64,000 nt of DNA, taken from contig NZ_CP011454.1 in assembly GCF_000695095.2 (NCBI RefSeq), forward strand, positions 1,488,001 through 1,552,000, in the 5' to 3' direction. The DNA is from Gemmatimonas phototrophica. Its GTDB lineage: Bacteria > Gemmatimonadota > Gemmatimonadetes > Gemmatimonadales > Gemmatimonadaceae. A program made the translations under genes and the position numbers. Below are positions 21,859 to 60,207 of this stretch, one piece after another (within the stretch, counting starts at the first letter, position 1; every line of letters begins with the position of its first letter). The notes under the pieces were generated by a model. That model did not search any database, was not told the origin of the DNA, and was given only the letters and a program-made list of their open reading frames with translations.

Positions 21859-23172
21859 TTACGGTTTGGTAACCCCTCTGAATCTTGGCGTATAATCCGG
21901 GAAGATCACGCCAAGGTTCGGGTTGCCGAGTCGGTTTTGCACGATTTCGGCGAGAATGTCACGATGGTCCAACGTGACGCGCAAATCCTGACCGGATTCG
22001 AGAACTTCGCGGGCCAAGCCCGGCCAGCCGTTGGTGAGCACACGGCCGCCATTGATCTTGCGCCCCATGGTGAACGCCACATTGCCACGGCCATGATCGG
22101 TGCCACGGTCGCCGTTCTCGCGCGCGTTGCGGCCAAACTCCGAAATCACCACCACCGTGACGCCGTACGTTGTCGTACCCTGCACGACATCAGCATGAAA
22201 GGCTGCCAGCGCGTTGGCCAGATCGAGCATGTTGTTGTGCATGCCCTGACCATCCATGCCCGGCACGTTGCCCTGGTTGGAGTGGGTATCCCACCCACCC
22301 TTGAAGGCGTGAATCGCCTCGACGCCCACATCGGCCTTGATCAGCGCCGCCGTCGAGCGCAGTACATTGCCAAAGCCGGAAGTGGGGTACACCGCGCCAT
22401 TGGCCGGACGATAGCCGGTGATGTTGATGCTTTGCAGCAGCGCAATGGTGTTGGTGGAATCGAGCGCGTTGGCCGAGACCGGATTGACCGCCTGGCTGTA
22501 GTTCTGCGCCAACCACTGCGTACGGGCCGTTGCCGTGGCGACATTTCCGCCGATCGTGAAGTTGGTGGGGTTGGGAATGGGCAATGCTTTCGGACCCAAC
22601 TCCAACGTCTTGGGCAACCCTGCGGTAAAGCCAATAGCCCGCAGCGGCGCATCACTGCGCAATGGCGCGCTGGTGGCCAGATGCCGACCCAGCCAGCCAC
22701 CGGCCACATTCACGTCCCGCGGTTTGCCGACCTCGATGTACCGCTGCGCATCGAAATGCGAGCGCGAGTTGTCCACCGAGCCCGTCGCATGCGCAACCAG
22801 CAGGTCTCCTGCCTGATACGCCGGATATAGCGGGGCCATGCCCGGCGAGAAGCCGAAAAATCCGTCGAGATTGGTGGCGCGATTCGCGGTGCCGGCCGCC
22901 GCATCGGGGCGCGCAATCGCGATCGTCGGGCGCCCGGTGTAGTAATCCGGATCGCCGTAGGGCACGACCATGGACATGCCATCGGTTCCACCACTCAGGA
23001 AGACCGACACCACAATATCGCGTGACGAATTCGACGACTGCGCCATGACCACCTGCGGCAGCCAGGTTGGCACGAACGCGGCCAATCCGACACCGCCGGC
23101 CATGGTGAGGAAGTCGCGGCGGGCCAGCGTCTGGTATTCCTGACATCCGGTGTCGATCGTATCGTCGCTCAT
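21859..23172 (-). CDS. DUF1501 domain protein, Tat-exported
   Basis: 437 residues. A twin-arginine signal (LARRDFLTMAGGVG) occurs at about residues 17-30. The body shows the DUF1501 alkaline-phosphatase-superfamily signatures: VVSVFLSGGTDGMSMVVPYGD, RSHFDAQRYIEVG, GGWDTHSNQG, VVVISEFGRNARENG, and TDHGRGNVAFTMG with His/Asp metal ligands. Function is unknown; members almost always pair with a DUF1800 protein, here immediately upstream (31 nt). The pair may be envelope-located and metal-binding. The stop lies about 25 bp beyond the family-D hairpin. Confidence 0.9.
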   Translation of the reverse strand: MSDDTIDTGCQEYQTLARRDFLTMAGGVGLAAFVPTWLPQVVMAQSSNSSRDIVVSVFLSGGTDGMSMVVPYGDPDYYTGRPTIAIARPDAAAGTANRATNLDGFFGFSPGMAPLYPAYQAGDLLVAHATGSVDNSRSHFDAQRYIEVGKPRDVNVAGGWLGRHLATSAPLRSDAPLRAIGFTAGLPKTLELGPKALPIPNPTNFTIGGNVATATARTQWLAQNYSQAVNPVSANALDSTNTIALLQSINITGYRPANGAVYPTSGFGNVLRSTAALIKADVGVEAIHAFKGGWDTHSNQGNVPGMDGQGMHNNMLDLANALAAFHADVVQGTTTYGVTVVVISEFGRNARENGDRGTDHGRGNVAFTMGRKINGGRVLTNGWPGLAREVLESGQDLRVTLDHRDILAEIVQNRLGNPNLGVIFPDYTPRFRGVTKP

Positions 23173-23203: not shown

Positions 23204-24781
23204 TCAATACCACTGGAATTCGTTGGCGCTCATCGCCAACGAAAGCGTTTCACGGACACGCGCATCGTTGTACGTACCACCGCGCAGATAGCTCAACAGC
23301 GACGCCCGCAACGCCGTCGGCATCTCCCCGGCAAACAGGCGCGTCGTAATCTGCTGCACCACCCCGTCGGCATTGTCCGGCGCACGGAAGAGCATCGAGT
23401 CGCTGCGGTACGTGGTGGTAGAGGTTTGCGCCGACAGGTACTGCATGTGCGTCCAGCGGGAGAGCACGAGCCCGCTCCACCACGCGATGGAATCAGGGAA
23501 GCCGTCGGGCTGATCCCACCGGAACAGCGGCATTCCCAACCCCTCGTTGTTGCGTCGGGCGTTGCGCACGTTGGGGACCGTGGCCGGCGTCGCCCCCAGC
23601 GCGCGCATGGCGGAAATGGCCAGATGAAAAGGACGCTTGTACTTGGCCGGTGCCGCCATGAGGTTCTTGCTGGTCACGATCGTGCGGATCATGGCCCGGA
23701 TGTCACCGCCCGTCCGCGTGAAGGTCGCGGCCGTCGCGTCAATCACACTCGCCGGTGGCTCATACGACAGCAGCCACCGCGCCATCTTGGTGCTCACGAA
23801 ACGCGCCGTGCTGGGATGTGCCAGCAGCATGTCGATGGCACGATCGCCCTCCCCCTTCATCTCAACATCGGTGGCCGTGGAGGCCATGCCCGGGAACAAC
23901 TGCCCGAGGAACGTCTTGGCGTTCCGGTCGTGATACGTCCGGCGCCACAGAAACGTGCCGTCGGTGTTGGTGCTCCATCCCGTCAGGATGCGCGAGAGTT
24001 CGGCCACATCGGTCTGGGTATATCCACCATCGACCCCCAGCGTGTGGAGCTCCATGATCTCACGCGCATAATTCTGATTGGGCGTGGGCGTGCGACTGGA
24101 GTTCTGGTTGAGGTAATTCAACATGGCCGCGCTCTGCGCCGACGCCTTCAGCAGATCACGGAAATTGCCCATCGCATGACGGCGAATCACGTCGCGATCA
24201 TCGAGCAGCTTGTTGAAGCCCACGTTCCCCACTTCAATGTCAATGCTGAAATGGTCCGTCCAGAACTCCACCATGCGCTCATACAACTGCTTGCGCGAGA
24301 ACAACGCCCGATACCACGCGGCGTCCGCCAACTGGTTCATGACCTCCGTGCGGTCCTGCGTGCGCAGCGCCGCGCCGGTCATCGCCAGCATGGGGAGCCG
24401 CGTGGCCAGCAGCGTGTCCACAACACTGTCGTCAATGGCCGCCGGGTTGAGCTGATACTCGAGATACCCGCTGAAGCCCAACTGGCGGGCCCGAGCCACT
24501 TCGTCCGGCGACAGCCCCATCGTGAGCCGTCGGACCAGGCGCAACACCGGGTCGCGCCACCCGAGCGAAACATCGGCACCAGGTGTGGTGCCCGCCGGCA
24601 ACGGCGCCCCTCGTCCGCCGCCCGCCCGCGGAGGCTGCGCCGAGACGGCCTGCGCTGCCGCCAGGGCGGCAACGGCACTCGTCCCCATGGCAAAAAACCG
24701 CCGACGGCTGGGAGCCGCCTCCGGCACGGTCGCGATGTCGCTCTCGGTGCCGCCCTGCTCGAGCTCGGTAGGGTTGATCAT
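23204..24781 (-). CDS. DUF1800 domain protein, Tat-exported
   Basis: 525 residues with a twin-arginine signal PSRRRFFAMGTSAVAALAA near the N-terminus. DUF1800 landmarks follow: LVRRLTMGLSPDEVARARQLG, YLEYQLNP, FWTDHFSI, RDVIRRHAMGNFRDLL, NYAREIMELHTLGVDGGYTQ, DVAELSRILTGW. It is the first gene of a two-gene unit with DUF1501. The biochemical role of the family is not known; the constant pairing suggests a complex or a sequential pathway in the periplasm. A TTGACA-like hexamer lies in the 162-bp upstream region, but no matching -10 is obvious. Confidence 0.9.
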   Translation of the reverse strand: MINPTELEQGGTESDIATVPEAAPSRRRFFAMGTSAVAALAAAQAVSAQPPRAGGGRGAPLPAGTTPGADVSLGWRDPVLRLVRRLTMGLSPDEVARARQLGFSGYLEYQLNPAAIDDSVVDTLLATRLPMLAMTGAALRTQDRTEVMNQLADAAWYRALFSRKQLYERMVEFWTDHFSIDIEVGNVGFNKLLDDRDVIRRHAMGNFRDLLKASAQSAAMLNYLNQNSSRTPTPNQNYAREIMELHTLGVDGGYTQTDVAELSRILTGWSTNTDGTFLWRRTYHDRNAKTFLGQLFPGMASTATDVEMKGEGDRAIDMLLAHPSTARFVSTKMARWLLSYEPPASVIDATAATFTRTGGDIRAMIRTIVTSKNLMAAPAKYKRPFHLAISAMRALGATPATVPNVRNARRNNEGLGMPLFRWDQPDGFPDSIAWWSGLVLSRWTHMQYLSAQTSTTTYRSDSMLFRAPDNADGVVQQITTRLFAGEMPTALRASLLSYLRGGTYNDARVRETLSLAMSANEFQWY

Positions 24782-24943
24782 GGATCCAATGCTTCACGTA
24801 GAGGGCGATTCTGTCAATGAACGGAACACAATCTTTGCAAACCCACCGTGCGCACCGTCACACAGCGTGAGTGCCGAGGCCCGCCGGGTGACAGCTGTTC
24901 ATGAAGCCGGAAAGTCCGGCCAGCCTGACGTGCGTCAGACGGC

Positions 24944-26206
24944 TCACAACGGGTTGGCGTTAAGACCATAAATGGCCTGCAGCAGCGCGAGCGCCACAAA
25001 CGCGACGACCCCGCCAAAGCCCAGAATCATCACCGGCTCAATCAGCGTCACCGCACGCCCCAGTTGGCGTTCGGCCGCCTCGTCCGCCGCCTCGGCGGCC
25101 CGGGCGGCCAGCGATGCCAGCGCTCCGCCAGCCTCGCCGGCCTGCAGGAGCTGACGGGCCAGCGGCGGGATATCGCTCCCCAAGGCCTCCACCACCGACT
25201 CGCCGTTTCGCACCCGCTCTTCGGCCGGCGCCAATTGCGCGGCATACGCGACGTTCCCCACCGTAGCCCGGGCCAATTCCATGGCGCGCAGCAATGACAC
25301 GCCGGCGTCGAGCGCCAGCGCCAGCGTCCCCAGATAGCGCGCCACATCCCGCTGGCGCTCAAAGGCACCAACCAGTGGCCAGCGCAGGCGACGCGCATGC
25401 CAAGCCGCCCGCCGGCTCGGATCGCGAAGGCTGCGCTGCCACAGCGCCGCGCCAACCGCCAGCAGCGGAAAGAGCACCCAGCCGCCGCGGGCGAGGGCGG
25501 CACTCATCAGCATCAATCCCTGCGTGGACAACGGCAGGCTCTGTCCCGTATCACCGAGCAAGGTGGCGAATCGCGGCACCACCACGAGCAGAATCACCAG
25601 CGTCCCGACAATCGACGAGAGGCCGAGCACCGCCGGATACACCAGCGCACTGCGAACACGCGCGGCGACCTGTCCGCGCCGCTCCAGCGCTTCGGCGAGT
25701 CGCCGGAACGTCAGTGCCAGTGCGCCGGTGGCTTCGGCGGCGGCCACCGCAGGGGCAAAGAACGAGGGCAATGCGCCGGCACCGGCCATGGCGTCGGCCA
25801 TGGAGCGTCCATCGCGCACGGATCGCTGGACTTGACCAAACACCTCGCGCCACTGCTGCTCCATGGCGCCGGCGCGACCACCCAGGTCGTCCGGCTGAGC
25901 GGCAAAGTCGAGGGCGCGTTCGGCCGGTACACCGGCGGCCAGCAACGTGGACACCACTCGGGTGATACTGGCCAGCGACTCCTCGTCCTGACCGGACCAG
26001 CGCGCCCACGTTATTGCCGCGCGTTGCCACCATCCGGAGATGGCCCCGGTGCCGGCCGACACGGCAGGCGCACTGTCGGGGTGCAACTCAATGACCCACA
26101 GCGACTGCTGGCGCAGCTGTGCCAGCGCTCCTGCGGCCGTCTCGGCGCGCAGCTCCCCCCGCAGTTCACGGCCGGATGCATCGGCTGCCACGTACGACCA
26201 GGTCAC
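24944..26206 (-). CDS. gspF: Type II secretion-like inner-membrane protein F (GspF)
   Basis: 420 residues with a GTG start overlapping the GspE stop (GTGA). Two GspF domains of about 120 residues are present, each with the family's hydrophobic ends: ALVYPAVLGLSSIVGTLVILLVVVPRF closes the first, and AVTLIEPVMILGFGGVVAFVALALLQAIYGLN closes the second with the conserved EP and glycine motif. The N-terminal stretch (YVAADASGRELRGELRAE) is the usual small cytoplasmic domain. GspF anchors the assembly ATPase at the inner membrane. It is the last gene in the operon. Confidence 0.9.
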   Translation of the reverse strand: MTWSYVAADASGRELRGELRAETAAGALAQLRQQSLWVIELHPDSAPAVSAGTGAISGWWQRAAITWARWSGQDEESLASITRVVSTLLAAGVPAERALDFAAQPDDLGGRAGAMEQQWREVFGQVQRSVRDGRSMADAMAGAGALPSFFAPAVAAAEATGALALTFRRLAEALERRGQVAARVRSALVYPAVLGLSSIVGTLVILLVVVPRFATLLGDTGQSLPLSTQGLMLMSAALARGGWVLFPLLAVGAALWQRSLRDPSRRAAWHARRLRWPLVGAFERQRDVARYLGTLALALDAGVSLLRAMELARATVGNVAYAAQLAPAEERVRNGESVVEALGSDIPPLARQLLQAGEAGGALASLAARAAEAADEAAERQLGRAVTLIEPVMILGFGGVVAFVALALLQAIYGLNANPL

Positions 26207-27708
26207 CCCTCGTCTCCGGCGTTGAGCACCCGGGTCAACTCGGCCACGGTGGTCTGCCCCTCCCGAACGAGACGCACGCCATCATCGCGCAGTGAGGACA
26301 CCCCGAGGGCGCGCACCGCCTGCCGCATGGCGTTCGACGAATCGCCGCGCGTGAATTGCTCACGCAAAGCATCCGTCATCGTCATCAACTCCACGATGGC
26401 CAGCCGTCCGCGATACCCGGTCCCCGAACAGCGGTCGCACCCGCGCCCTTCGCACACCTTTTCCGGGATTGCTCCGTTGCCCAGCAGTGCGCGCTCCTCC
26501 GGCAAGACTGCGCGCCACGCACCACAGTCGCGACACACACGCCGCACCAGCCGCTGCGCGACCACCCCCTGCAGCGTGGCCGTGAGCAGATAGGCCGGCA
26601 CTCCCATGTCGCGCAGACGGGCCAACGCCCCAATGGCATCGGTGGTATGCACCGTGCTCAGCACGAGATGGCCCGTGAGCGCCGCGCGCACGGCGATTTC
26701 CGCCGTCTCGGCATCACGCATCTCACCCACGAGAATCACATCGGGGTCGTGTCGCAGGATGGCGCGCAACGCTTCCGCGAAGCCAAAGCCGGCCCGCGTG
26801 TTCACCGGCAGCTGCACCACATCATCGAGACGGTACTCCACCGGGTCTTCCACGGTCACGACTTTCACCCCCGGTGCACTGCGCTCTCGCAGGGCGGCGT
26901 ACAGCGTGGTGGTTTTTCCCGAGCCGGTAGGGCCGGTCACGAGCACCAGACCACTGCTGCGATGCAGCAAGGCGCGAAGTGCCTCACGCGTGGCGTCGGC
27001 CATCCCCAGCGCGTCGAGCAACAGCGGCGTGGATGTCGCCGCCTGTTCTTCACCGCCATCCAGCAGTCGCAGCACAATGCTCTCGCCGTGCAGAGCCGGC
27101 AGCGTGGAAATGCGAATATCCATTTCGCGCTGTCCGACACGCACGCGGGCCCGCCCATCCTGCGGCAGTCGGCGCTCCGCAATATCGAGACCGGCCAGCA
27201 CCTTGATGCGGGACACCACCGCCGCACGAAACTCCTGCCCCAACTGCTGGACGTCGCGCAGAACCCCATCGAGCCGCATGCGAATGCGCACCCCATCCGC
27301 GCGCGTCTCGACATGGATGTCACTGGCGCCGGCGCGCAGCGCTTCGGCCAGCATGGCATTCACGACCTGAACTACCGGTTCGCGGTTGGCCAGCGCCTTG
27401 AGGCTGTCGAGCGACTCCACGACATCACCGGCCAGCGTCTCCGCGGTGGCCGCGGGCGTGTCGCGCGGGATGGCGACCAGGGCCGCACGGATATCACCGG
27501 CTCCTGCCGGCACGATCTCCACGCTCGCGCCGAGTGTGCGTTCGAGCGCGTCGAGCACATGCAGGGGCGGCATCCCGTCGGCCGCCACGCGTGCGACTGT
27601 GCCGTCGAGGGACAGCGGCAACACCGCCTGCTCCTCCAGCCAGCGCGCCGGAAAACGGCGAGCCAGTGGCTCAGCAGCAGCCGCGCGGAGGTCGCGTGCA
27701 TCCGTCAT
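26203..27708 (-). CDS. gspE: Type II secretion-like assembly ATPase (GspE)
   Basis: 501 residues. A short N1E-like domain is followed by DIHVE-R-DGVRIRMRLDG, a conserved Arg-rich linker, and the RecA-type core: Walker A GPTGSGKTTT with Lys265, Asp box VTVEDPVEYRL, Walker B DPDVILVGEMRD, and the His box TGHLVLSTVHTTDA. The C-terminal four-cysteine metal-binding element of GspE/PilB is present (CRDCG about 30 residues before CEGRGCDRCSG). It hydrolyses ATP to drive pseudopilus assembly. It lies 7 nt after gspD and overlaps gspF. Confidence 0.93.
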   Translation of the reverse strand: MTDARDLRAAAAEPLARRFPARWLEEQAVLPLSLDGTVARVAADGMPPLHVLDALERTLGASVEIVPAGAGDIRAALVAIPRDTPAATAETLAGDVVESLDSLKALANREPVVQVVNAMLAEALRAGASDIHVETRADGVRIRMRLDGVLRDVQQLGQEFRAAVVSRIKVLAGLDIAERRLPQDGRARVRVGQREMDIRISTLPALHGESIVLRLLDGGEEQAATSTPLLLDALGMADATREALRALLHRSSGLVLVTGPTGSGKTTTLYAALRERSAPGVKVVTVEDPVEYRLDDVVQLPVNTRAGFGFAEALRAILRHDPDVILVGEMRDAETAEIAVRAALTGHLVLSTVHTTDAIGALARLRDMGVPAYLLTATLQGVVAQRLVRRVCRDCGAWRAVLPEERALLGNGAIPEKVCEGRGCDRCSGTGYRGRLAIVELMTMTDALREQFTRGDSSNAMRQAVRALGVSSLRDDGVRLVREGQTTVAELTRVLNAGDEG

Positions 27709-27715
27709 GAGCGAC

Positions 27716-29515
27716 TCAGCGCGATGGCGGTCGCTTGACCGGCGTGTCGTTCAACGCGCCCGGCGACTTCTCTTCCATCCGCTTGCGAATACGCTCCCGA
27801 ATCGCGTCGGCATCGGTGTCGGAACGCACGATGTACGGCGTCACGAAGATGGCCAATTCGGTGCGCTGCCGTGTGGTGGATTGGCGTCGGAAGAGTCCGC
27901 CGAGGTACGGGATGTCCATCAGCAGCGGGATCCCCTGATCCTGCACCTGACGCGTGTCGCCAATGAGGCCGGCAATCACCACCGTTTGTCCATCACGCAG
28001 TACCGCCCGCGTACTGGCTTCGCGCGTGGAGATAATGGGCGCGCTGAGTGCCGCTGACACCGTTTGCGGCGTGAGGGAGCTGACTTCCTGCAGCAGCTGC
28101 ACCGAGACATAGCCATCATCGTTGATGGTGGGCAGAATGGAGAGCTTGGTGCCGACATCCTGGTACTGCACCGCGCGGTCGATGGAGATGTCATTGCCCA
28201 GGCGGGTGCTGGCAATGAACGGGACCTTGCTGCCCACCAGAATGGTCGCTTCGCGATTGTTGACCGCAATGATCTCCGGCGTGGACAGCACCTGCACCTT
28301 GCTGGTGGAGGCAATCGCACGCAACAGGGTGCGGACGCCCGTGCCATCCAGTCGAACCAACCGCAACAATGCCGAGGTCGATCCGGTATCCGGGATTTCC
28401 GGGTTGCCGAACTGCCCCTGCACGTCGCCACCGCGATTCACCGCGGCCCAATCCACACCGAATTCAAAGCCGCGTCCCAGCGCGATCTCGGCAATCGTCA
28501 CCTCGAACAGCACCTGCGCCGGTCGGATATCCAGCGCGTCAATGGTTTCCCGCAGCATGGGGAAGTTGGGAGGCGCCGTCCGTATCACGAGCGCATTGGT
28601 GGGGCCGTTGGCGACCACCGTCGTACGTCCCACCAGCAACCCGGCGGCTGAATCGCGCGGCGCTCCGGCGGCTACGGGGGCGGCGGAGCCGGCGCCACCC
28701 TGTGGCAGCGCTGCGTTGCGCGTGCGGAACGTTTCGGTCTCGCGAGCCCGGAAGCTGTCGAGGGCCCGGGTCAACGAGCGGTCGCTCAGGGATCCGATGT
28801 TGGTGTTGGCCACCTGCACACCGAACAGCTGGCCAATGGCGGAAGCGAGATCTTCCGCCGACGCATACTTGAGATTCACCACATACGTGCGCAGCCCCGC
28901 TTCGCCGGCCGGCGACGCGTCGAGCGTGCGCAGGAGTTCCAGGTACCGCGCCATGTTACTGCCGCGATCGGTGATGAGCAGGGCATTGGAGCGTGCGACG
29001 GTCTCCACGCGCGCGCCCTTGGCCAGTACCGCGCGCAATGCTTCGGCGCCTTCGTCGGCGCGAATGCTTTGCAGCGGCACCAGCTGCGTGACCAGTCCCA
29101 GAGGCGGCGGATCGGGAAAGGCAAAGCCGGTGCGCAGCGCACCGGCCGACGGTGCCTTGTCGGTTGGCAGCACCTGCGCCACCATGCCGCTCGGCACCAG
29201 CATCAGCCCGTGGGCCTCCAGCAGCGATTCCAGCACGCGCTCCACGTCGGCGGTCTGCACCGCCGCCGGGGTCGCGAACGTCACGCGCACATCGGGGATA
29301 TCGCTGAGGATCACGGTGCGCCCCAGCACCTGTGCGAGTGCGCGGATAACATCGGCCAGTCGTGCATTGGCAAAATCGAGTGATGCTGATTTCGACGTCT
29401 CGGTGGGCCGGACTTGTGCGCCGAGCGGATGCACCGGGCCCCAGGTGACGGCCAGCGAGAAACCCAGCACCAGCGCCCCGATCCGGGCGCAATGACGCAT
29501 ACAGAAAACCTTCAC
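27716..29515 (-). CDS. gspD: Secretin (GspD/PilQ type) of the T2SS-like system
   Basis: 599 residues. The start is GTG at 29515 overlapping the gspC-like stop, with ATG at 29500 as an alternative; both give a signal peptide ending near GAQ. N0 domain (LDFANARLADVIRALAQVLG), then N1/N2-like KH repeats (YVVNLKYASAEDLASAI; TNALVIRTAPPNFPMLRETIDALD), then the secretin barrel: VLSTPEIIAVNNREATILVG, DVGTKLSILPTINDDGYV, VLRDGQTVVIAGLI, and IPLLMDIPYLGGLF near the end. It forms the outer-membrane channel. No obvious S-domain for a pilotin is seen. Confidence 0.92.
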   Translation of the reverse strand: MKVFCMRHCARIGALVLGFSLAVTWGPVHPLGAQVRPTETSKSASLDFANARLADVIRALAQVLGRTVILSDIPDVRVTFATPAAVQTADVERVLESLLEAHGLMLVPSGMVAQVLPTDKAPSAGALRTGFAFPDPPPLGLVTQLVPLQSIRADEGAEALRAVLAKGARVETVARSNALLITDRGSNMARYLELLRTLDASPAGEAGLRTYVVNLKYASAEDLASAIGQLFGVQVANTNIGSLSDRSLTRALDSFRARETETFRTRNAALPQGGAGSAAPVAAGAPRDSAAGLLVGRTTVVANGPTNALVIRTAPPNFPMLRETIDALDIRPAQVLFEVTIAEIALGRGFEFGVDWAAVNRGGDVQGQFGNPEIPDTGSTSALLRLVRLDGTGVRTLLRAIASTSKVQVLSTPEIIAVNNREATILVGSKVPFIASTRLGNDISIDRAVQYQDVGTKLSILPTINDDGYVSVQLLQEVSSLTPQTVSAALSAPIISTREASTRAVLRDGQTVVIAGLIGDTRQVQDQGIPLLMDIPYLGGLFRRQSTTRQRTELAIFVTPYIVRSDTDADAIRERIRKRMEEKSPGALNDTPVKRPPSR

Positions 29516-30051
29516 GGTTCGACCCCGTTGGAGTCCGACGGAAATTTGCGGCGCAGGCGCACGGTGCGCGTGCCCGACTCAGACGCTAGCTCCACACGAT
29601 CCACGCCAATGGCACGCACCCGGTATCCACCTACACGGTCACCGGTTTGCACAACACGCGGCACACTGTCTAAGCCGGGCACACGCAACAAGGCTCGACG
29701 CACCCCATTCACCATGAGCACCCCCTGCAGTTCCGGGGCATCCGTGCTCAACGAAGTGACAGGATCCGCCATCGGCACCATGAGCGGTTCCTGCCCGGGA
29801 AGTACAAAGCGCACCCGGGGGGCTTGTCGCGTGGCACTGAAGAGATTCGTGCGGACCATGCTCCTCATGCTGCTGTCCGACTGATTGTCCGACGGCGGGC
29901 GGTCCAGTGGGGCGGGGGATATCTCCACGGGCCGTTCGGCAATCGGCGCGATTGGTACCACAAGCGCGATCAGGCCCAGGACGACCACCATGGCAGACGC
30001 GGCATGCAGCCAGGCAGGCGTCACGCGGCGAGGGGTTGTTGGCGGCGCCAT
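29512..30051 (-). CDS. GspC/PilP-like inner-membrane protein
   Basis: 179 residues. One transmembrane helix is predicted near residues 12-35 (SAMVVVLGLIALVVPIAPIA), then a Pro/Asp-rich linker and a small beta domain with ELQGVLMVNGVRRALLRV and VVQTGDRVGGYRVRAIGVD. This is the HR-type fold of GspC, which binds the secretin N0 domain; PilP shares it. The placement directly before gspD supports the call. No PDZ or coiled-coil C-terminal domain is present, so it is a short form. The ATG overlaps the GspM-like stop by one base. Confidence 0.72.
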   Translation of the reverse strand: MAPPTTPRRVTPAWLHAASAMVVVLGLIALVVPIAPIAERPVEISPAPLDRPPSDNQSDSSMRSMVRTNLFSATRQAPRVRFVLPGQEPLMVPMADPVTSLSTDAPELQGVLMVNGVRRALLRVPGLDSVPRVVQTGDRVGGYRVRAIGVDRVELASESGTRTVRLRRKFPSDSNGVEP

Positions 30052-30626
30052 CAGCGGGGCCTCTCGTCGCGTATCACAGCGGCCCGCACACTGAGGGACA
30101 GCTGCAGGACATCCGGCGCGCCGCGGAGCGCGCTGTTCTGTTGCACCGTAAAGCGCTCCACCTGCACCAGCCGCGCCCCCGATTCCAGCGTGCGGAGCAG
30201 CGCCGCCAATCCGTGGATATCGCCTACCGCCGTGAGCGTACCGCGCACGGCTTCGGTGCTGTCGCTCTCCGGCTCTACCTCCACGCGAGACACGGCCATC
30301 CCCGCACCTTCGGCCGCGTCCTGCAACAGTGTTTGCAAGGCGCTGGCCGCCAGTGAGGCGTCCGAGGCATGCAGCGCACGCCGAGGAGAGGCGGCAAGCC
30401 AGCGCTCATCGGCATCGGCGGTCCGCTCAAGGTCACTCGTACGGGCGATGTAGCCGGCGAACAAACCCGCGCGCTCCCGCGTGGCCGAGATTTGCAATTC
30501 GCGGCTCTGAAAATGACGCCACAGCGGCAGCAGCCCGTAAACCACCAGCAGGGCGGCGGTCGCAATCAGTGCGCCGCCCCTCACCACCAGCCGCTCCCGC
30601 TGTTGCTCAGAACGCGAGGCACTCAT
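30051..30626 (-). CDS. GspM/PilO-like inner-membrane protein
   Basis: 191 residues. A single helix (ALIATAALLVVYGLLPLWR) follows a charged cytoplasmic start. Then comes a coiled-coil-like stretch (SRELQISATRERAGLFAGY) and a ferredoxin-like domain (LLRTLESGARLVQVERFTVQQN). These features match GspM of type II secretion or PilO of type IV pili, which partner GspL or PilN. The position after the gspL-like gene with an ATGA overlap supports the pairing. Primary sequence identity to model systems is low, so the name rests mainly on architecture and order. Confidence 0.7.
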   Translation of the reverse strand: MSASRSEQQRERLVVRGGALIATAALLVVYGLLPLWRHFQSRELQISATRERAGLFAGYIARTSDLERTADADERWLAASPRRALHASDASLAASALQTLLQDAAEGAGMAVSRVEVEPESDSTEAVRGTLTAVGDIHGLAALLRTLESGARLVQVERFTVQQNSALRGAPDVLQLSLSVRAAVIRDERPR

Positions 30627-31741
30627 GGCGTTTGCCCGGTGGGAGAGGCCGCAAGAGCAAAGGACAGGGAGAAGGAACTCCGCGGCTGTCCTCCATCAAG
30701 AAAGCGGGTACTGGGGGCCAGACTGCGTACATCCCCCACTCCCGGCAGCCCCGCCAGCAGTGGTACCAGCGACGCGGCATCACGTGCACTGCCGTCGAGG
30801 CGCCAACGGCTGCCATCCCATTCTGCGCGCTGCACGAACACATCCGCCGGCAGTCGCTCACCGAGCAGTGCCAACACCTCACTGATGCGAGGGTGGGTCG
30901 TGCCTTCCGTCAGCAGCTGACGTTCGCGCTGTGCCCGCTGCCGACGGGCGTCTGCATCAAGTGCCGGTTGCGCCCGGATTGCCAGCGCCTCGCGCTGCGC
31001 GTTCCCCTCGGCCAGCGCACGCTCGCGCCACTGATCGGCACTCCACAGGCAGAAGGCGATCGCCGCGACGCCAATACCGGCGGCGCGCCACCAGGCGCCC
31101 TGCCGCCGCGCGAGCATCCGACGCTCCAATGCCGGATCGAGCAACTGCCAATCGAGGGGCAGTGCCCCCGCGTTTAGAAGGGCGGTCGCGCAGAGAGAAT
31201 CATCGAGTACGGTTGCGTTTGCCGGCGGTGACTGCCGCAGGCGACGAACCTGCCGCAACGTGCCTTGGCGGAACTCCATCACTCCGGTTTCACCAGACGC
31301 CGCCGTGGTATGCACCGTGCCGTCCACACCGGCCAACTGCGCTGCCTGAGGGAGTGCGACTACTGCGTCCACCGGCGCAATGGTGGCAAACGACCGGACC
31401 CACGTGGTGAGCGTGTCCGCCGGCATCGCGAGCGCCACACCATCGGCGATCGCCACGGCAGGGGGCGCGGCAAACGGAAACCAGCGGTCCGCATCCAGCT
31501 GCAGCATGCGTCGCTGTTGCGCCAATGGTACCGGAGGCAATGTCAGCGGCACCGCCTCAAGCCAGGCGAGTCCCACCACGAGTACCAGCTGCGTCGGTTG
31601 GTGGGGCAGGGCGGCGAGTGTACGCACCGCCGCTTCGGGGGCGTCGGACTGCCAGGGCACGACGGCCACCGGGGTCACCGTTCCCGCGGCGTACACGCGC
31701 ACCTGGTCGCTGGTCAACATCAAGGCCCAGCGCCGGCTCAT
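30623..31741 (-). CDS. GspL/PilM-PilN-like protein
   Basis: 372 residues from ATG 31741, chosen because it overlaps the gspK-like stop as ATGA. The N-terminal about 230 residues look like an actin-like cytoplasmic domain (VVPWQ, LQLDADRWFPF, VLDDSLCATALLNAG). A transmembrane helix (WWRAAGIGVAAIAFCLWSA) and a PilN-like periplasmic domain follow (RISEVLALLGERLPADVFVQRAEWDG, LVPLLAGLPGVGDV). GspL couples the ATPase GspE to the periplasmic machinery. Identity with classical GspL is low; a fused PilM-PilN description fits equally. Confidence 0.75.
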   Translation of the reverse strand: MSRRWALMLTSDQVRVYAAGTVTPVAVVPWQSDAPEAAVRTLAALPHQPTQLVLVVGLAWLEAVPLTLPPVPLAQQRRMLQLDADRWFPFAAPPAVAIADGVALAMPADTLTTWVRSFATIAPVDAVVALPQAAQLAGVDGTVHTTAASGETGVMEFRQGTLRQVRRLRQSPPANATVLDDSLCATALLNAGALPLDWQLLDPALERRMLARRQGAWWRAAGIGVAAIAFCLWSADQWRERALAEGNAQREALAIRAQPALDADARRQRAQRERQLLTEGTTHPRISEVLALLGERLPADVFVQRAEWDGSRWRLDGSARDAASLVPLLAGLPGVGDVRSLAPSTRFLDGGQPRSSFSLSFALAASPTGQTP

Positions 31742-32631
31742 CGTGACTGCTCCCGCCACCGTACCAGGCGCAATTCGCGACCTTCCACGGCGTACACGGC
31801 CTGAATTTCATGAGTGACGGCCGTGCCGGGCTGCCATCCACGCCCCACGATGCTCAGTCGGGTTGGGCGATCGACCAGCGACCCACTCGCGGCGGCGCGC
31901 ACCGCCCGCGACGCATGCCGACGGTCAATGCGTCCATCGCCATCAACGGTCAGCTCATCGGCTATTGGAGCCATCCACCGGGCGTCGTCACCCAGCAGCT
32001 GCTGGACCTCGTCCAGCGAATCGAAGGGACGCAGCAGCCGAGGGGCTGCGCGACGCCCCAACAAGCTCGCCACGAGCGAGTCACGCGTGGCCAGGGAATC
32101 GCGTGTGGGCGCCGACAGCCGGTCGCCGCGCACATGGGTGTCCAGCATGGTGGCGATTCGCACGGCGACATCCGCCGGCGCTACCGTACGCAGGAGTGAG
32201 GTCAATCCCTCCACCCCCGCGGTGTTCACATCGAGGCGAGCACTCACGTTCACCAGCGTGGCCGCAAAGGCGCCATACTCAAGACTGTCACTGGCGAGTG
32301 GGCGGCTCCGATCCGTCGGCGCCAGCAGGGCATCGAACATGGCGTCCTCCGCCAACGAATCCGTTGCCGCGTCCAGCTGCGTTTCCACGGTGACACGCGC
32401 CGCGAGTACCGCACTCTCCGCCATGGCCCGTGCGGTCGCCATGGCACGGCTGTTCACGGTGAGGTGGGCGGAATCCCGCGCCGCTTTGCCGGCCATCGCC
32501 GTCAGACTCACCAGTACCGCGATGGTCATGAGGGCGGAGAGCAGCGCGGCGCCACGGCGCTGCCGTGTGACCGGGCCTACCGGGCGACGAAAGGCCGGTT
32601 CCGTCGTGAGGTCCATCGTTACGTATGTCAC
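31738..32631 (-). CDS. GspK-like minor pseudopilin
   Basis: 297 residues with a GTG start overlapping the gspJ-like stop (GTGA); ATG at 32616 is an alternative. The N-terminus has RQRRG followed by AALLSALMTIAVLVSLTAMAG, a prepilin-type helix without Glu at position 5, as is normal for GspK. Helix-hairpin-helix-like segments (RLDVNTAGVEGLTSLLRTV; FDSLDEVQQLLGDD) match the SAM-like GspK domain. GspK caps the pseudopilus tip with GspI and GspJ. The length is normal for the family. Confidence 0.83.
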   Translation of the reverse strand: MTYVTMDLTTEPAFRRPVGPVTRQRRGAALLSALMTIAVLVSLTAMAGKAARDSAHLTVNSRAMATARAMAESAVLAARVTVETQLDAATDSLAEDAMFDALLAPTDRSRPLASDSLEYGAFAATLVNVSARLDVNTAGVEGLTSLLRTVAPADVAVRIATMLDTHVRGDRLSAPTRDSLATRDSLVASLLGRRAAPRLLRPFDSLDEVQQLLGDDARWMAPIADELTVDGDGRIDRRHASRAVRAAASGSLVDRPTRLSIVGRGWQPGTAVTHEIQAVYAVEGRELRLVRWREQSR

Positions 32632-33230
32632 TGGCCGCTCCCGTCCGTCGCCAACGGACTGAGGACGACCACCAGCGGCTCACCTGGCGTGTCCTTCTGC
32701 CGCCAGTGCAGACGCACGGCGGCGGGCCGCGTTTGCGCAATTGGCCAATCAGCGCGCCACGCGGCAGCCTCGCCGGCACGCGTTGGCTCCAGTACCTCGA
32801 TGTCAAGCGCGGCACCATTCGGCAGCTGCATCGTGATGGCCGGTGTCGTGACGTCCTCGCGTACCGGGACCGCCTGCAGCCGGAGCCCCGTGCTGTCCTC
32901 CCACAGGGTCGCCCGCCACACGGGGCCAGCGCCAAAGGGGGCGTGCACGCCAGTCGTCAGAAATTCCAGCACCGTGCCATCCACGTTCCGACGGATCTGC
33001 AGTAACGGTTCCGACGCACGGTCCCCGCTAGGCGCGTGCCGAAGCATGTCGGTGAGCATCGCCCGCAGGCGCACATCCGCCCCGCGGACCTCTCCATGCG
33101 CTTCGACACGCTCACCGGTCCGGCGCGCGGCTACCATGGTGGTCCCAGCCAGCGCGGCGGCAATGGCGGTGAGCGTGAGAGCGAGCATGAGCTCCACCAA
33201 CGTGAAGCCCGTCCGGCGAATGCGCGGCAT
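32628..33230 (-). CDS. GspJ-like minor pseudopilin
   Basis: 200 residues. A short basic leader ends in TG, then FTLVELMLALTLTAIAAALAG gives a canonical type IV prepilin signal with Glu5. The globular part has the beta-rich character of GspJ (LQIRRNVDGTVLEFLTTG, AVRLHWRQKDTPGEPLVVVLSP). It would be cleaved and N-methylated by a GspO peptidase, which is not encoded in this window. It starts 2 nt after the gspI-like stop and overlaps the gspK-like start. Confidence 0.83.
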   Translation of the reverse strand: MPRIRRTGFTLVELMLALTLTAIAAALAGTTMVAARRTGERVEAHGEVRGADVRLRAMLTDMLRHAPSGDRASEPLLQIRRNVDGTVLEFLTTGVHAPFGAGPVWRATLWEDSTGLRLQAVPVREDVTTPAITMQLPNGAALDIEVLEPTRAGEAAAWRADWPIAQTRPAAVRLHWRQKDTPGEPLVVVLSPLATDGSGQ

Positions 33231-33232
33231 GC

Positions 33233-33541
33233 TCAGCGCCCAACCGTTGGCCGTTCCATCAGCCGAACCAGTTCCACCTGTCCGCCGTCCGGCTGGGGGA
33301 CGCGCACCCGCACCAGCTCCAGACGTGGGTTGGCGGCATAGCGCTGGCGGTCCACGGACACCCCTTTACCTGCCGGGAGTCCCAGCACGGCGGCCGCCAG
33401 TTCACTCTCCGCCCGAACGGTCGCCGCGCTCACCAGTTCCGCTTTGCGCTGCAACTGCGCGGCGTTACGCGTTCCCTCCAGGCAGCCAATGGCCACCACC
33501 GACAGGATCACCGTCGCCAGCAGCGCTTCCAGTAGCGTCAT
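33233..33541 (-). CDS. GspI-like minor pseudopilin lacking a leader peptide
   Basis: 102 residues beginning MTLLEALLATVILSVVAIG, which is the mature N-terminus of a GspI pseudopilin with Glu5 but without the basic leader and Gly(-1). Upstream in frame are only five codons before a TGA, none of them a usual start. The ATG overlaps the preceding stop (ATGA). The remaining domain is short (family members are about 120). Either this protein is inserted uncleaved, or a sequencing or annotation frameshift hides the leader. Neighbours leave the assignment firm. Confidence 0.75.
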   Translation of the reverse strand: MTLLEALLATVILSVVAIGCLEGTRNAAQLQRKAELVSAATVRAESELAAAVLGLPAGKGVSVDRQRYAANPRLELVRVRVPQPDGGQVELVRLMERPTVGR

Positions 33542-33996
33542 CGCCTGGTCCGGGGCTCAACCGTCCACCGGCATTTCCCCGCATCAAACGCGGCGCGATG
33601 CTCCTCGCTGGGAATCCACCCGGGCGAGGGGCGGCAGGTGCCGCGGGCGTCCACCGTGAGGTCGAGCGGGGCAGGAGGGGCCGTGATGTTGCCGGCGGCT
33701 ATCGGGTCCGTAAGGTCGGGCGCCACGACGCTCCACAGCCCGTCGTTGTACACCCGCACGCGAAGCGACTGCTGCCGCTGTACGGCCAGACGGCGCGCGC
33801 TGTCCACCACCGCCTTCATGTCACTGGCCGACTCGGCACGCCGTGTACCGCTTTGGGTGACCTGTCGGGACAGCAGCAGAGCGCCCGCAATCCCGAGGAT
33901 CACGAGCACCACCAGCACTTCCATGAGGGTCAGCCCCACCCGTAAACGCAGGGGGGGCAGAGGGCGCGACCGGGAGGCATGCAAAAGGAGAGGCAC
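33538..33996 (-). CDS. GspH/FimT-like pseudopilin
   Basis: About 152 residues from GTG 33996; the frame is open to a TTG at 34038, giving an implausibly long leader. RLRVG precedes LTLMEVLVVLVILGIAGALLL, a prepilin helix with Glu5. The globular part (DMKAVVDSARRLAVQRQQSLRVRVYNDG) is GspH/FimT-like. It is the first gene of the ten-gene operon. No gspG lies near it, so it may also act as the main subunit, though the sequence is closer to GspH. A TTGACT hexamer lies within the discarded upstream part of the frame. Confidence 0.72.
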   Translation of the reverse strand: MPLLLHASRSRPLPPLRLRVGLTLMEVLVVLVILGIAGALLLSRQVTQSGTRRAESASDMKAVVDSARRLAVQRQQSLRVRVYNDGLWSVVAPDLTDPIAAGNITAPPAPLDLTVDARGTCRPSPGWIPSEEHRAAFDAGKCRWTVEPRTRR

Positions 33997-34071
33997 GGCA
34001 GACAATCTCGGGGCCTTCCCGGGGAAGTCAACAAACAATAGTCACAACACCGGCATTCCCTGCTCCGGGAT

Positions 34072-34105
34072 CCCCGCGCCGTTCGCGACGCGAAACGGCG
34101 CGGGG
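34072..34105. terminator. Perfect 12-bp hairpin behind the 34114 gene
   Basis: Arms 34072-34083 and 34094-34105 (CCCCGCGCCGTT type) are perfect complements with a 10-nt loop, just after the stop of the minus-strand gene. No T-tract follows, so it is a stabilising hairpin or a factor-dependent terminator separating that gene from the T2SS operon. Confidence 0.55.
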
Positions 34106-34113
34106 CGGGGCAG

Positions 34114-34869
34114 TTACTTCTTGATCAGGGGCACAATGGCGGCCGGTACCGACACTTCCACGGCGGCGTTGGTCTGCACGTCCTTGATCGTCATGATCAT
34201 CGTCTGCGGACCCATCGTGGTCTGCGCCTTGGTGGCAAACTTGATGCCGCCAAAGGTCTTGTAATCCGACACGACGGTGGAGGTCTGAATGCTCCCCATT
34301 TCGCTGGTGATCGTCGCCTCTCGGCCAACTTCCAGTCCCGAGGCCGCAGAGAAGTAGATCCAGCTTTCCGAGCCAGTTCCCTTACGTACGAACTTGAGCT
34401 TCCACGTCTTTTCTCCGGCGAAATCCACCGACCCTTCGTTGGTGATGGACGTATAGCGATCGGCGTCGTACAGCATGCTGTAGAAATCGGCCTGCTCCAT
34501 CATCTGATCCTTTTCCTTGCCTTCCACCAACCGCGGACCCTGCATGGGGTTCACGGACCAGGCATTCTGGCCGTCCGTTCCCGTCAGGACTTCGCCCATA
34601 CCGCCCAGCACCATCTTGGTGGACACCTTGTTAGGCGCCACTGCTGCCAATTCCATCTCCGCCGTCAGGCCGGCACCCGGGAGCTCCATGGTGCCGATCT
34701 GCTTGTACGACGTCATCTTGGCGATCGCGTCCTTGCCGCCAATGGCTGCCACGTGCTTGGCAATCACCTCGGCCGCGGTCGGTGCCGCCTGCGCGACCAG
34801 GGCCTGCGCCGACAACAGCAGCGCGGCCGACACCGTGAACGCAGTACGAACCGTCTTCAATGCAAACAT
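34114..34869 (-). CDS. Exported outer-membrane lipoprotein-sorting-like protein (LolA/LolB-type fold)
   Basis: 251 residues, signal peptide TVSAALLLSAQALVAQA, ribosome site GAGGAG upstream. APTAAEVIAKHVAAIGGKDAI is a recurrent opening of periplasmic proteins of the LolA-like superfamily, followed by MTSYKQIGTMELPGAGLTAEM, TGTDGQNAWSVNP, YFSAASGLEVGREATI and a final GGIKFATKAQTTMGPQTM. The half-barrel LolA/VioE-like fold binds lipid chains. No partner is visible; it lies between the S41 lipoprotein and the T2SS operon on the same strand. Function is inferred only at fold level. Confidence 0.75.
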   Translation of the reverse strand: MFALKTVRTAFTVSAALLLSAQALVAQAAPTAAEVIAKHVAAIGGKDAIAKMTSYKQIGTMELPGAGLTAEMELAAVAPNKVSTKMVLGGMGEVLTGTDGQNAWSVNPMQGPRLVEGKEKDQMMEQADFYSMLYDADRYTSITNEGSVDFAGEKTWKLKFVRKGTGSESWIYFSAASGLEVGREATITSEMGSIQTSTVVSDYKTFGGIKFATKAQTTMGPQTMIMTIKDVQTNAAVEVSVPAAIVPLIKK

Positions 34870-34899
34870 GCGAGGGTGCTCCTCAGGGAAATGGGACCT

Positions 34900-36321
34900 T
34901 CAGGGAATAAGCGGGCGCGCTGCGCGGCGCGCCGCCCAGAGAATCGCTGCGTCGAGCGCAGGATCCTGTCCGTCCAGCAACGCGCGACGGAGCAGTGGGG
35001 TCACAGTATCGGGACGAACGCCGTCGCCTTCCACCGGTTTGCCAGTGGGGCCCAGGAAGTCCGCGATCGCGTGATACAGGATGTCACCGTTCGGCAGTCG
35101 CTCCGGCACTGACGGGAGCGCCTGCCCGGCGGTTTGCGTACCAAAAACCGTAGCGCGGCCAATCGCCTGCAGCCCACCGGCAAAGATCTCGGTGGTACTG
35201 GCCGACAGCGGGTCCACCACCAGCGCCAACGGGCCGGCAAAGGGGCGGACCGGACGATTGCGGGTATCGCTGCGACGGGGGTTGGCCAGGAACTTCATGG
35301 TGCTGCCGCGCTGGTGCATTTCGCCAAGCGCGTAGGCGCTATCGACGAAGTGCCCGGCAAATCCCATGGACATGCCACCCACACCGCCAAAATTGCCGCG
35401 CACGTCGAGCACAATGGCATCGGCCCCGCGCAGCGAATCCATGGCGGCATCAAAACGGGCCGCCAGTACCGGCATCCAGATGTTGAATCGGATGATCCCC
35501 ACCGTGCGCCCGTCGCGCTTGACCCGCTGCCACTCGAGATGGGCCTCTACCGGCGGCAGATTGCCAAATTTCACCACCGAGCCGCGCACCGGCGCAAAGA
35601 CCAATGGCACCGTCCGCATCTGGTTGGCGGCATCGCGGAAGGTTACCGCCAACGTGTCCCCCTCGGCGCCGGACAGCGCTCCCGCCACCATCTGGTAGGC
35701 CATGAGCGTGCGGCGTCTCGGTTCCAGGGTGGTTGGCAGTTGGGCGACCCGGGGGGCTACCGGGCAGCCACGAATGCCCTCCACCGTCCAGCCGGTACGC
35801 ACGCCAGCTTGCCAGGCGGGGCCTGTGGAATCGATCGAGGACACCACCGTCAACGACTCCACCAGCCGGGTCTCGAAGCCGAGGGTACCCGTGGGGCGCC
35901 CGCTACTGCCGCCACCGTTCGAGGCCCCCGTGGCGTCCGAGACTTCCTGCGGGATGATGGCGAAGTGCGACTGCTTGAGTCGGCTTACCATGTCGGAGAG
36001 TACCAGCCGCAGCTCGCCTCGCGTCCGGGCGGCCTGCGCCCGCGGACGGAGCTCCTCCCGTACCGCCAGCCAGTTTACCCCATTATACGTCGTGTCCCAA
36101 TGGGTCCGGCGGATAATCGCCCAGGCGGTGTCAAAAGTGACCAGGGGATCGGTCGCGGGAGCGTCCGCCAGCGAAGACGAGGACTGCGACGCCGGTACGC
36201 CGCAGGCGGCGGCGAGGGGGGCGGGCACGGACGTGCTCGCCGACACGGCTCCCGGCGCACGGCCAGCGCAGGCCGCGAGCACCAGTGCACATCCGGGGAG
36301 GAACAGAGCGCGAGAGACCAT
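34900..36321 (-). CDS. S41 family peptidase lipoprotein
   Basis: 473 residues, with lipobox LVLAAC near residue 18. An N-terminal helical cap (FDTAWAIIRRTHWDTTYNGVNW) precedes a PDZ-like part (VVSSIDSTGPAWQAGVRTGWTVEGIRG), then the S41 core: VGIIRFNIWMPVLAARFD, ADAIVLDVRGNFGGVGGMSMG, PLALVVDPLSASTTEIFAGGLQAIGRA with Ser in SASTTE as nucleophile candidate, and VFGTQTAGQALPS. It is an outer-membrane or periplasmic serine protease. A TATCTT box ends exactly 6 nt before the ATG, so the mRNA may be leaderless. Confidence 0.88.
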   Translation of the reverse strand: MVSRALFLPGCALVLAACAGRAPGAVSASTSVPAPLAAACGVPASQSSSSLADAPATDPLVTFDTAWAIIRRTHWDTTYNGVNWLAVREELRPRAQAARTRGELRLVLSDMVSRLKQSHFAIIPQEVSDATGASNGGGSSGRPTGTLGFETRLVESLTVVSSIDSTGPAWQAGVRTGWTVEGIRGCPVAPRVAQLPTTLEPRRRTLMAYQMVAGALSGAEGDTLAVTFRDAANQMRTVPLVFAPVRGSVVKFGNLPPVEAHLEWQRVKRDGRTVGIIRFNIWMPVLAARFDAAMDSLRGADAIVLDVRGNFGGVGGMSMGFAGHFVDSAYALGEMHQRGSTMKFLANPRRSDTRNRPVRPFAGPLALVVDPLSASTTEIFAGGLQAIGRATVFGTQTAGQALPSVPERLPNGDILYHAIADFLGPTGKPVEGDGVRPDTVTPLLRRALLDGQDPALDAAILWAARRAARPLIP

Positions 36322-60168: not shown

Positions 60169-60170
60169 CG

Positions 60171-60207
60171 ATCTGCTCTCCGCTCCCTGTTCCCTGCTCC
60201 CTGTCTC
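60171..60207. repeat. Family-B repeat array, copy 3 (minus orientation)
   Basis: CTGCTCT, CCGCTCC, CTGTTCC and CTGCTCC in tandem, the complement of the GGAGCAG words. The array ends 4-5 nt before the GTG start of the next gene, so it would form that gene's leader. Confidence 0.8.

What the first reader, a model, noticed from the sequence alone, without database searches (positions are those of the whole stretch)
24944..33996. T2SS-like operon in order H-I-J-K-L-M-C-D-E-F without GspG
All other core parts are in one coupled series, but the major pseudopilin GspG and the peptidase GspO are absent, and the usual C-D-E-F-G-H order is rearranged. The GspC-like protein is short and the L/M-like pair could equally be PilN/PilO. 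The system may be a distinct type IV filament branch with GspG elsewhere, or with the GspH-like protein as main subunit.
Basis: partly seen in the sequence, partly recalled or inferred. Interest (0 to 1): 0.5.

Follow-up and report, generated by a model that had tools for sequence, protein, structure and literature searches.

The report
Secretion machine with ready-made tip subunit
A protein-export machine in a soil-type bacterium turns out to be a fairly ordinary type II secretion system whose main filament gene sits elsewhere in the genome, but one of its filament-tip subunits appears to be made without the start-tag that such subunits normally have cut off.

Summary
In detail: window 24944-34038 (- strand) holds gspH-I-J-K-L-M-C-D-E-F without gspG or gspO. 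It is not a new filament branch. The order is the textbook C-D-E-F-G-H-I-J-K-L-M opened at G and rotated; relatives carry H-I-J-K-L-M-C-D-E-F-G in one run. In this genus gspG is missing there, and a complete GspG lies 1 Mb away behind an SH3-type gene (22 loci in the genus). Two prepilin peptidases lie elsewhere. L is a fused GspL by predicted architecture. So: a type II secretion system (T2SS) with a displaced major pseudopilin.

Two unexpected points. (1) The orphan GspG groups with GspG of a second Gemmatimonadota T2SS lineage, so the pseudopilin was probably swapped (AU test does not exclude the alternative). (2) GspI lacks a leader peptide: its start codon is mature residue +1, in a 4-base overlap with gspH in 20 of 22 such loci. 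22 of 34 related loci show this; the other 12 have normal leaders, and H, J, K, G keep theirs. My paper searches showed no report of a leaderless pseudopilin. DUF1800/DUF1501 neighbours are possible cargo. Function is untested.

The parts
33538..34038 (-). gspH-like minor pseudopilin, 166 aa from first possible start (TTG); motif RVG^LTLMEV
   Evidence: (TIGR01708 29.5 bits, under cut-off)
33233..33541 (-). gspI, 102 aa, starts MTLLEALLATV: start codon is mature residue +1, no leader; in-frame TGA six codons upstream
33538..33541 (-). 4-base ATGA overlap of the gspH stop with the gspI start
32628..33230 (-). gspJ-like minor pseudopilin, 200 aa, RRTG^FTLVEL
31738..32631 (-). gspK, 297 aa, RRG^AALLSAL (no Glu5, as usual for GspK)
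30623..31759 (-). gspL, 378 aa, fused actin-like half + long helix + ferredoxin-like half
30051..30626 (-). gspM, 191 aa
   Evidence: PF10741 36.3 bits; NF040576 56.9 bits; PilO E 0.28
29512..30051 (-). gspC, 179 aa, short; no Pfam domain found, so no PDZ seen
   Evidence: (GspC 2lnv E 0.47)
27716..29515 (-). gspD secretin, 599 aa, N0 + Secretin_N + Secretin
26203..27708 (-). gspE ATPase, 501 aa
24944..26206 (-). gspF platform, 420 aa
24782..24943 (-). 162-bp gap where relatives carry gspG between gspF and the DUF1800 gene
23204..24781 (-). DUF1800 protein, 525 aa, N-terminal SRRRFF Tat-like motif; T2SS-linked subfamily; possible cargo
21859..23172 (-). DUF1501 protein, 437 aa, RRDFL Tat-like motif; possible cargo or partner

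Best explanation
This is a T2SS of Gemmatimonadota ('type A' here) that probably secretes folded periplasmic proteins, perhaps including the two Tat-type neighbours DUF1800 and DUF1501. SHOWN from sequence: a full set of parts minus gspG in the cluster; a single complete GspG gene at another locus (SH3-type gene - gspG) and prepilin peptidases elsewhere; relatives with gspG between gspF and the DUF1800 gene; a gspI whose only or best-placed start codon is the mature +1 codon in 22 related loci, overlapping the upstream ORF by 4 bases in 20 of them. INFERRED: the native gspG was lost in the Gemmatimonas-like clade and a GspG of the second ('type B') Gemmatimonadota T2SS lineage took its place, so the machine is a chimera; a PilD-type peptidase matures G, H, J and K, while GspI is inserted in its final form (Glu5 present, no leader to cut), skips peptidase processing and probably N-methylation, and helps seed the tip that starts the pseudopilus; GspE/F/L/M then add GspG, and cargo leaves through GspD.
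For: Orphan GspG is the only PF08334 in the genome; PF00482 proteins lie at three loci and there are three secretins, so no second T2SS is seen for GspG to serve. In the genus, 23 of 26 genomes with type A GspD have a GspG; 22 of 27 GspG matches sit behind the SH3 gene, four of the other five in type B clusters, one (L186) not to be told. Relatives keep G right after F. In the GspG tree type A GspG is a separate side (98/97*) and the orphans lie with type B (too). Leaderless GspI: +1 codon is ATG (17) or GTG (5) in 22 of 34 type A loci with gspI in view; 14 of 22 have no ATG/GTG/TTG in frame within 40 codons upstream, 9 of them with a stop 2 to 10 codons upstream; 20 of 22 overlap the upstream ORF's stop by exactly 4 bases. 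The 12 others have CTC/TTC/CTG at +1, Gly at -1 and an upstream start. Controls: over all loci with the motif, an upstream start within 40 codons for H in 29 of 30, J in 34 of 35, G in 35 of 35; K in 32 of 32 type A loci. No charge in residues 6-20 of any of the 22. Leaderless as one clade fits a seven-gene tree. DUF1800-DUF1501 follow the cluster in 20 of 22 leaderless loci, the other two ending at contig edges, and sit beside type B clusters too.
Against: No expression or protein data. AU test does not reject orphan GspG with type A GspG (p 0.153; p 0.125). G111, G166 and G167 carry type A GspD but no GspG, SH3 or Rrf2 match (G111 only pilin-like matches up to 35 bits); these are drafts, so gap or loss cannot be told apart. 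In G161 the only GspG found is in a type B cluster. Eight of the 22 leaderless loci do have an in-frame start 7 to 40 codons upstream (L076, L078, L079, L086, L118, L119, L124, L140); none of these has Gly at -1, and only L076 has Ala. L107 has Gly at -1, the window and four others Ala; of these six only L076 has an upstream start. In the GspE+F tree and in the free seven-gene quick tree the leaderless rows are not one clade. Glu5 was part of the motif used to find +1, though no gspI row was lost by it. DUF1800/DUF1501 were not seen beside the 12 canonical-leader clusters (some of those loci end early), and some linked DUF1800 proteins show no Tat motif.
Confidence: 0.75

Rival explanations
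1. A distinct type IV filament branch in which the GspH-like protein is the main subunit and the orphan GspG is unrelated to the cluster.
For: gspG is 1 Mb away; the type A H profile matches E. coli GspG better than GspH (P98 against P95), as does J (P95 against P91 for GspJ); G111, G166 and G167 show no GspG.
Against: Close relatives have gspG in the same run directly after gspF; the genome has one T2SS-like set; 21 of the 22 genomes with an SH3-gspG locus carry type A GspD, the exception (G153) being 57% complete.
Confidence: 0.05
2. GspI is made with a leader after all, from an upstream or non-standard start codon or a frameshift out of gspH.
For: In 13 of 22 loci the frame upstream of +1 is open for more than 10 codons and in 8 it holds a start within 40 codons; L107 has Gly at -1; in the window the -1 residue would be Ala.
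Against: In 9 of 22 (window, L073, L075, L077, L087, L104, L105, L125, L130) a stop lies 2 to 10 codons upstream with no ATG/GTG/TTG between; 20 of 22 have the 4-base overlap exactly at +1; the upstream residues are not alike between most loci.
Confidence: 0.1
3. The orphan GspG is the type A GspG that simply moved, without a swap.
For: AU test p 0.153 for orphan + type A; GspG is short (143 columns).
Against: Best tree puts type A GspG apart with 98/97*, orphans among type B; likelihood 14 units lower when forced; mean identity orphan-B 60.6% against orphan-A 55.1%.
Confidence: 0.25
4. gspI lost its leader because it is decaying and no longer needed.
For: GspI is short (102 aa) and scores weakly against the GspI model (19.4 bits, cut-off 44.35).
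Against: None of the 22 has a charge in residues 6-20; the predicted fold is a clean long helix with three strands (pLDDT 94.8) whose three best matches are T2SS minor-pseudopilin entries; frame and place are kept across the group, and the overlap in 20 of 22.
Confidence: 0.06

Closest known systems
Type II secretion system (Gsp/Xcp/Xps), e.g. E. coli K-12 gspCDEFGHIJKLMO
   Same: Counterparts of C, D, E, F, G, H, I, J, K, L, M; order is the K-12 order opened at G; fused GspL; GspK without Glu5.
   Different: gspG unlinked and probably of other T2SS descent; no gspO in the cluster; GspC short; GspI without leader (K-12 GspI starts MNKQSG^MTLLE).
T2SS with scattered genes and shared PilD (Acinetobacter, PMC4713064, passages read)
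   Same: T2SS genes in separate loci; the T4P prepilin peptidase also serves the T2SS.
   Different: There five loci; here one cluster plus an orphan gspG. No leaderless GspI in the passages read.
Gemmatimonadota type B T2SS (e.g. G054, G078, G056; loci L090, L091, L188)
   Same: Sister lineage in the GspE+F tree; DUF1800/DUF1501 neighbours.
   Different: Order G-F-H-I-J-K-L-M-C-D-E with gspG in place; GspI with Gly at -1 in L090, L091, L101.
MSH pili, which lack their own peptidase (PMC6668835, passages read)
   Same: Would borrow the prepilin peptidase of another system.
   Different: MSH is a separate branch there; gene content here is T2SS.

Membership tests
Type II secretion system | GspD secretin with N0 domain | tested here: met
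   PF00263 159 bits, type_II_gspD_N0 31.1 bits; TIGR02517 346.1 bits against PilQ 186.5, curated cut-off 351.35 narrowly missed
Type II secretion system | GspE ATPase and GspF platform | tested here: met
   GspE model 508 bits against PilB 449; GspF 283 against XpsF 174, HofC 159, PilC 150; all under the curated equivalog cut-offs
Type II secretion system | GspG major pseudopilin in the genome | tested here: met
   PF08334 138 bits, profile 1-108 of 108, C1:2553368-2553700
Type II secretion system | Minor pseudopilins H, I, J, K with K lacking Glu5 | tested here: met
   H and J assigned by order and weak models
Type II secretion system | GspL as one actin-like + ferredoxin-like protein | tested here: met
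   one chain with both halves: EpsL Z 13.2 (185 aligned, rmsd 3.1), tied with PilM 12.3; PulL periplasmic Z 9.1 (74 aligned, rmsd 2.5), tied with PilO 8.4
Type II secretion system | GspC and GspM | tested here: met
   GspC_delta in 18 of 18 members, window 22 bits against cut-off 150; GspM_XpsM 56.9 of 60 bits, T2SSM_b over cut-off. Weak
Type II secretion system | Prepilin peptidase available | tested here: met
   two PF01478 genes outside the window, one shown to have A24_N; which serves the T2SS is not tested
Type II secretion system | Phylogenetic place inside classical T2SS | tested here: inconclusive
   clade with type B 100/99*, but T2SS/T4P backbone 71/63 and T4P rows not one side; GspE tree backbone unresolved
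Type II secretion system | Secretes proteins across the outer membrane | not testable with these tools
   needs gspD/gspG deletions and a secretome
Type IV pilins (class III signal peptide), for GspI | Hydrophilic leader of 6-26 aa ending in Gly/Ala, cut by prepilin peptidase | tested here: not met
   no leader at the gene level in the window; start at +1 in 22 of 34 type A loci; definition from PMC4471445 and PMC10191384, passages read
Type IV pilins (class III signal peptide), for GspI | Hydrophobic helix with Glu5 and helix-plus-sheet fold | tested here: met
   (Glu5 was part of the search motif)
Type IVa pilus | Separate PilM and PilN; retraction ATPase PilT with the set | tested here: not met
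   fused L; genes that read as PilB, PilT and PilC lie together at another locus, L012

The most novel reading that the evidence does not exclude
A type IV filament subunit family that is made already mature: in one lineage of T2SS the tip pseudopilin GspI has lost its class III leader for good, is inserted and assembled without prepilin peptidase (and probably without N-methylation), and works in a machine whose major pseudopilin was exchanged for that of another T2SS lineage.
Probability: 0.57. Interest if true: 0.65.

Novelty: new variant of a known kind. Interest (0 to 1): 0.52.

Why it matters
Reviews define type IV pilins by a leader that a dedicated peptidase removes before assembly (PMC10191384, PMC4471445, passages read). 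A natural, evolutionarily stable exception at a tip subunit would show which steps (membrane targeting, topology, keeping the subunit inactive until cut, N-methylation) the leader is really needed for. It also gives a natural experiment: related machines with and without the leader. The gspG displacement suggests that the main filament subunit can be exchanged between T2SS lineages, and that cluster-based detection may call such systems incomplete. The DUF1800/DUF1501 link gives two proteins of unknown function a testable route out of the cell.

Tried and rejected
Distinct filament branch and GspH-as-main-subunit: rejected because relatives have gspG in the run and this genome has one GspG and one T2SS-like set.

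GspE tree over T2SS, T4P and PilT rows: type A is one clade (100/99*) and its 11 leaderless rows are one clade (88/86), but the backbone is open and several rows are very long; not used for placement. GspE+F tree: firm for A + B, weak against T4P; in it the leaderless rows are split by the canonical ones. The seven-gene quick tree (26 rows) also split them, but the tree that holds the 15 leaderless rows together is 45.6 log units better than the free search (p-AU 0.999), so one loss fits best. A long Gemmatimonas branch may explain the split; not tested further.

Foldseek with the GspI model gave nothing significant. The VIA second look put chains of the XcpGHIJK filament model, the EpsI:EpsJ dimer and the XcpV:XcpW complex on top at Z 6.6, 6.4, 6.1; the answer does not name which chain is GspI, and these Z are modest (unrelated rows reach 5.5). 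Profile comparison of C, L and M with single E. coli sequences was uninformative. The K scan used a motif that missed 9 K rows and misplaced others; one search repeated it (upstream start in 32 of 32 with motif; one row without motif, one locus without K). In one search the first motif missed eight gspI rows: five type A ones (L086, L104, L105, L124, L140), read with a wider motif, and three type B ones (L090, L091, L101), read by eye as Gly at -1.

No promoter-like site was found in 24700-34300; shuffles give 0.8 on average. Empty searches for SH3 and Rrf2 in G111, G166, G167 have no positive control in the same call. Papers: ten searches of the held library. The listings showed no leaderless pseudopilin, no paper with both DUF1501 and type II secretion (zero), none with both Gemmatimonas aurantiaca and type II secretion (zero). 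Two papers name DUF1501 and DUF1800 together and were not opened. Most subscription papers are not held; apart from passages of five papers only listings and abstract starts were seen.
Full report
WHAT WAS CHECKED. The window is C1:1488001-1552000 of a 4,716,552-bp single-contig genome. Named relatives of the cluster are nearly all Gemmatimonadota, several filed as Gemmatimonas; that the size fits Gemmatimonas phototrophica AP64, and G019 (4,636,964 bp) G. aurantiaca T-27, is recalled. The others score weakly alone, so I built family alignments from relatives (18 members each): C hits the GspC model in 18 of 18, L hits PilN in 18 of 18, K finds GspK structures, I hits the GspI model in 12 of 18 (and PilV in 8). 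The predicted L model (pLDDT 91.2) matches EpsL/GspL cytoplasmic domains in its N half (Z 13.2 and 13.1; PilM 12.3 is tied) and PulL/XcpY periplasmic domains in its C half (Z 9.1 and 9.0; PilO 8.4 is tied). Both halves in one chain is the GspL architecture.

WHERE ARE G AND O. One PF08334 protein exists in the genome, complete, at C1:2553368-2553700: 144 aa, RRG^FTLLEVLVV near its start, directly after a 264-aa gene with weak zinc-ribbon and SH3 matches (under Pfam cut-offs), and followed by an Rrf2 regulator. Prepilin peptidases lie at C1:2814354 (306 aa, with A24_N) and C1:3703817, the latter among genes that read as Tad. The genome has T2SSF proteins at three loci and three secretins, so one T2SS.

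RELATIVES. In 150 Gemmatimonadota genomes PF08334 matches in 50, 39 of them above 90 bits, and the window GspD matches at E 1e-20 or better in 65 (this includes weak secretin matches). The stronger GspD matches fall in two groups: type A (window-like, about 48% identity or more) and type B (about 34-43%). I fetched loci, removed 10 duplicates of 85 and annotated 75. Type A relatives such as L078, L079, L086, L125, L130 read H-I-J-K-L-M-C-D-E-F-G-DUF1800-DUF1501. Gemmatimonas-like loci (window, L073-L076, L104, L105, L107, L112, L115, L118, L119, L122) have the same run without G. G079 (L077) also lacks G there and has an orphan GspG. In the genus, 30 genomes were searched: 26 have type A GspD (25 strong, G162 a contig-edge piece) and 23 of these 26 have GspG; G111, G166 and G167 do not. 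Of 27 GspG matches, 22 lie behind the SH3 gene, 4 in type B clusters (one of them the only GspG of G161), and L186 has too short a contig to tell. So 21 of the 26 show an SH3-gspG locus. SH3, GspG and Rrf2 are all unseen in the three drafts, as if the whole locus were missing.

A SWAPPED GspG. In the GspG tree the 23 in-cluster type A proteins form one side of a branch (98/97*), and the orphans, with the orphan of G079, lie with type B. With outgroup rows the orphans again fall in the type B clade (99/100*), though type A is then not one clade and a long rhodobacterial row falls into it. Mean identity orphan-B is 60.6%, orphan-A 55.1%. Forcing orphans with type A costs 14 log units but the AU test does not reject it (p 0.153). 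I hold the swap probable, not shown.

A LEADERLESS GspI. The window gspI starts MTLLEALLATV; a TGA lies six codons upstream in frame and no ATG/GTG/TTG lies between. Of 38 loci with a gspI in view, 34 are type A: 22 have ATG (17) or GTG (5) exactly at mature +1, and 12 have a Leu/Phe codon there, Gly at -1 and a start upstream; the 3 type B and 1 rhodobacterial loci also have Gly at -1. In 14 of the 22 no start codon lies in frame within 40 codons upstream, in 9 of these because a stop lies 2 to 10 codons upstream; in 8 of the 22 there is one 7 to 40 codons upstream, never with Gly at -1. In 20 of the 22 the stop of the upstream ORF (gspH by order) overlaps the +1 codon by 4 bases (ATGA/GTGA); L076 has a 31-bp gap and in L125 no upstream ORF was found. 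Rows are related (L104 and L105 look near-identical), so these are not 22 independent events. The seven-gene tree fits one loss and the GspE tree groups the leaderless rows (88/86), but the GspE+F tree does not. Controls: the same scan over all loci finds an upstream start within 40 codons for H in 29 of 30 (L078 has one at -48), J in 34 of 35 (the exception, L150, is cut by the contig edge) and G in 35 of 35 with the motif (rows without motif left out: H 3, J 4); K in 32 of 32. Within the 22 leaderless loci J has one in 22 of 22 and H in 19 of 20 with motif. None of the 22 has a charge in residues 6-20; Glu5 was part of the search motif, but no gspI row was lost by requiring it. The predicted fold is a long helix with three strands (pLDDT 94.8); its best matches are T2SS minor-pseudopilin entries. 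Reviews state that leaders are 6-26 aa, end in Gly or Ala and are cut before assembly (PMC4471445, PMC10191384, passages), and that the tip order is H-J-I-K (PMC10790768, passages). Mechanism (inferred): GspI inserts by its own helix, needs no peptidase, and helps seed the tip complex. How it keeps its N-terminus inside without a basic leader is open: the region just after the TM is not less positive than in canonical relatives (2.91 against 2.67 Lys+Arg, net -1.27 against -2), so no compensation was seen.

CARGO. DUF1800 and DUF1501, both with Tat-like N-termini in the window, follow the cluster in 20 of 22 leaderless loci (the other two end early) and were seen in none of the 12 canonical type A loci (some end within or soon after the cluster). 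They also flank type B clusters in L090, L091, L188, L192, L194, not in L101. A tree separates this subfamily (23 of 33 rows, SH-aLRT 100*) from a general DUF1800 copy that also occurs in six sampled genomes without GspG or GspD match. The RR motif is present in all 11 type A neighbours read and in four of five type B ones, three of these without a clear hydrophobic stretch. That these proteins are secreted by this T2SS is inference from neighbourhood.

VERDICT. Ordinary at the level of the question asked: a T2SS with a displaced gspG; scattered T2SS genes and a shared peptidase are known (PMC4713064, passages). Worth a test: the leaderless GspI and the probable GspG swap.

Noticed in passing
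window 34114-36321: An S41-family peptidase gene and a secreted-looking gene without family match sit just upstream of gspH in most Gemmatimonas-like loci, not seen in the more distant type A loci.
   Followed up: partly
G000:C1:704000-713000 (L201): A second DUF1800-DUF1501 pair, of the general subfamily that also occurs in genomes without T2SS matches.
   Followed up: partly
L119 and L152: Contigs labelled Candidatus Kuenenia and Chloroflexi carry type A Gemmatimonadota-like T2SS genes; probably misbinned or mislabelled MAG contigs.
   Followed up: no
L010 8298-9092: The gene before the orphan gspG codes for a protein with weak zinc-ribbon and SH3 matches; its pairing with gspG in 22 loci suggests a role in GspG use, unknown.
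   Followed up: partly
window 59080-61281: Two adjacent, similar-looking genes whose products start with a CIHC motif (362 and 357 aa).
   Followed up: no
G079 (L077, L095): A genome of the same family but another genus with a type A cluster lacking gspG and an orphan GspG that also looks type B-like; possibly a second displacement.
   Followed up: partly
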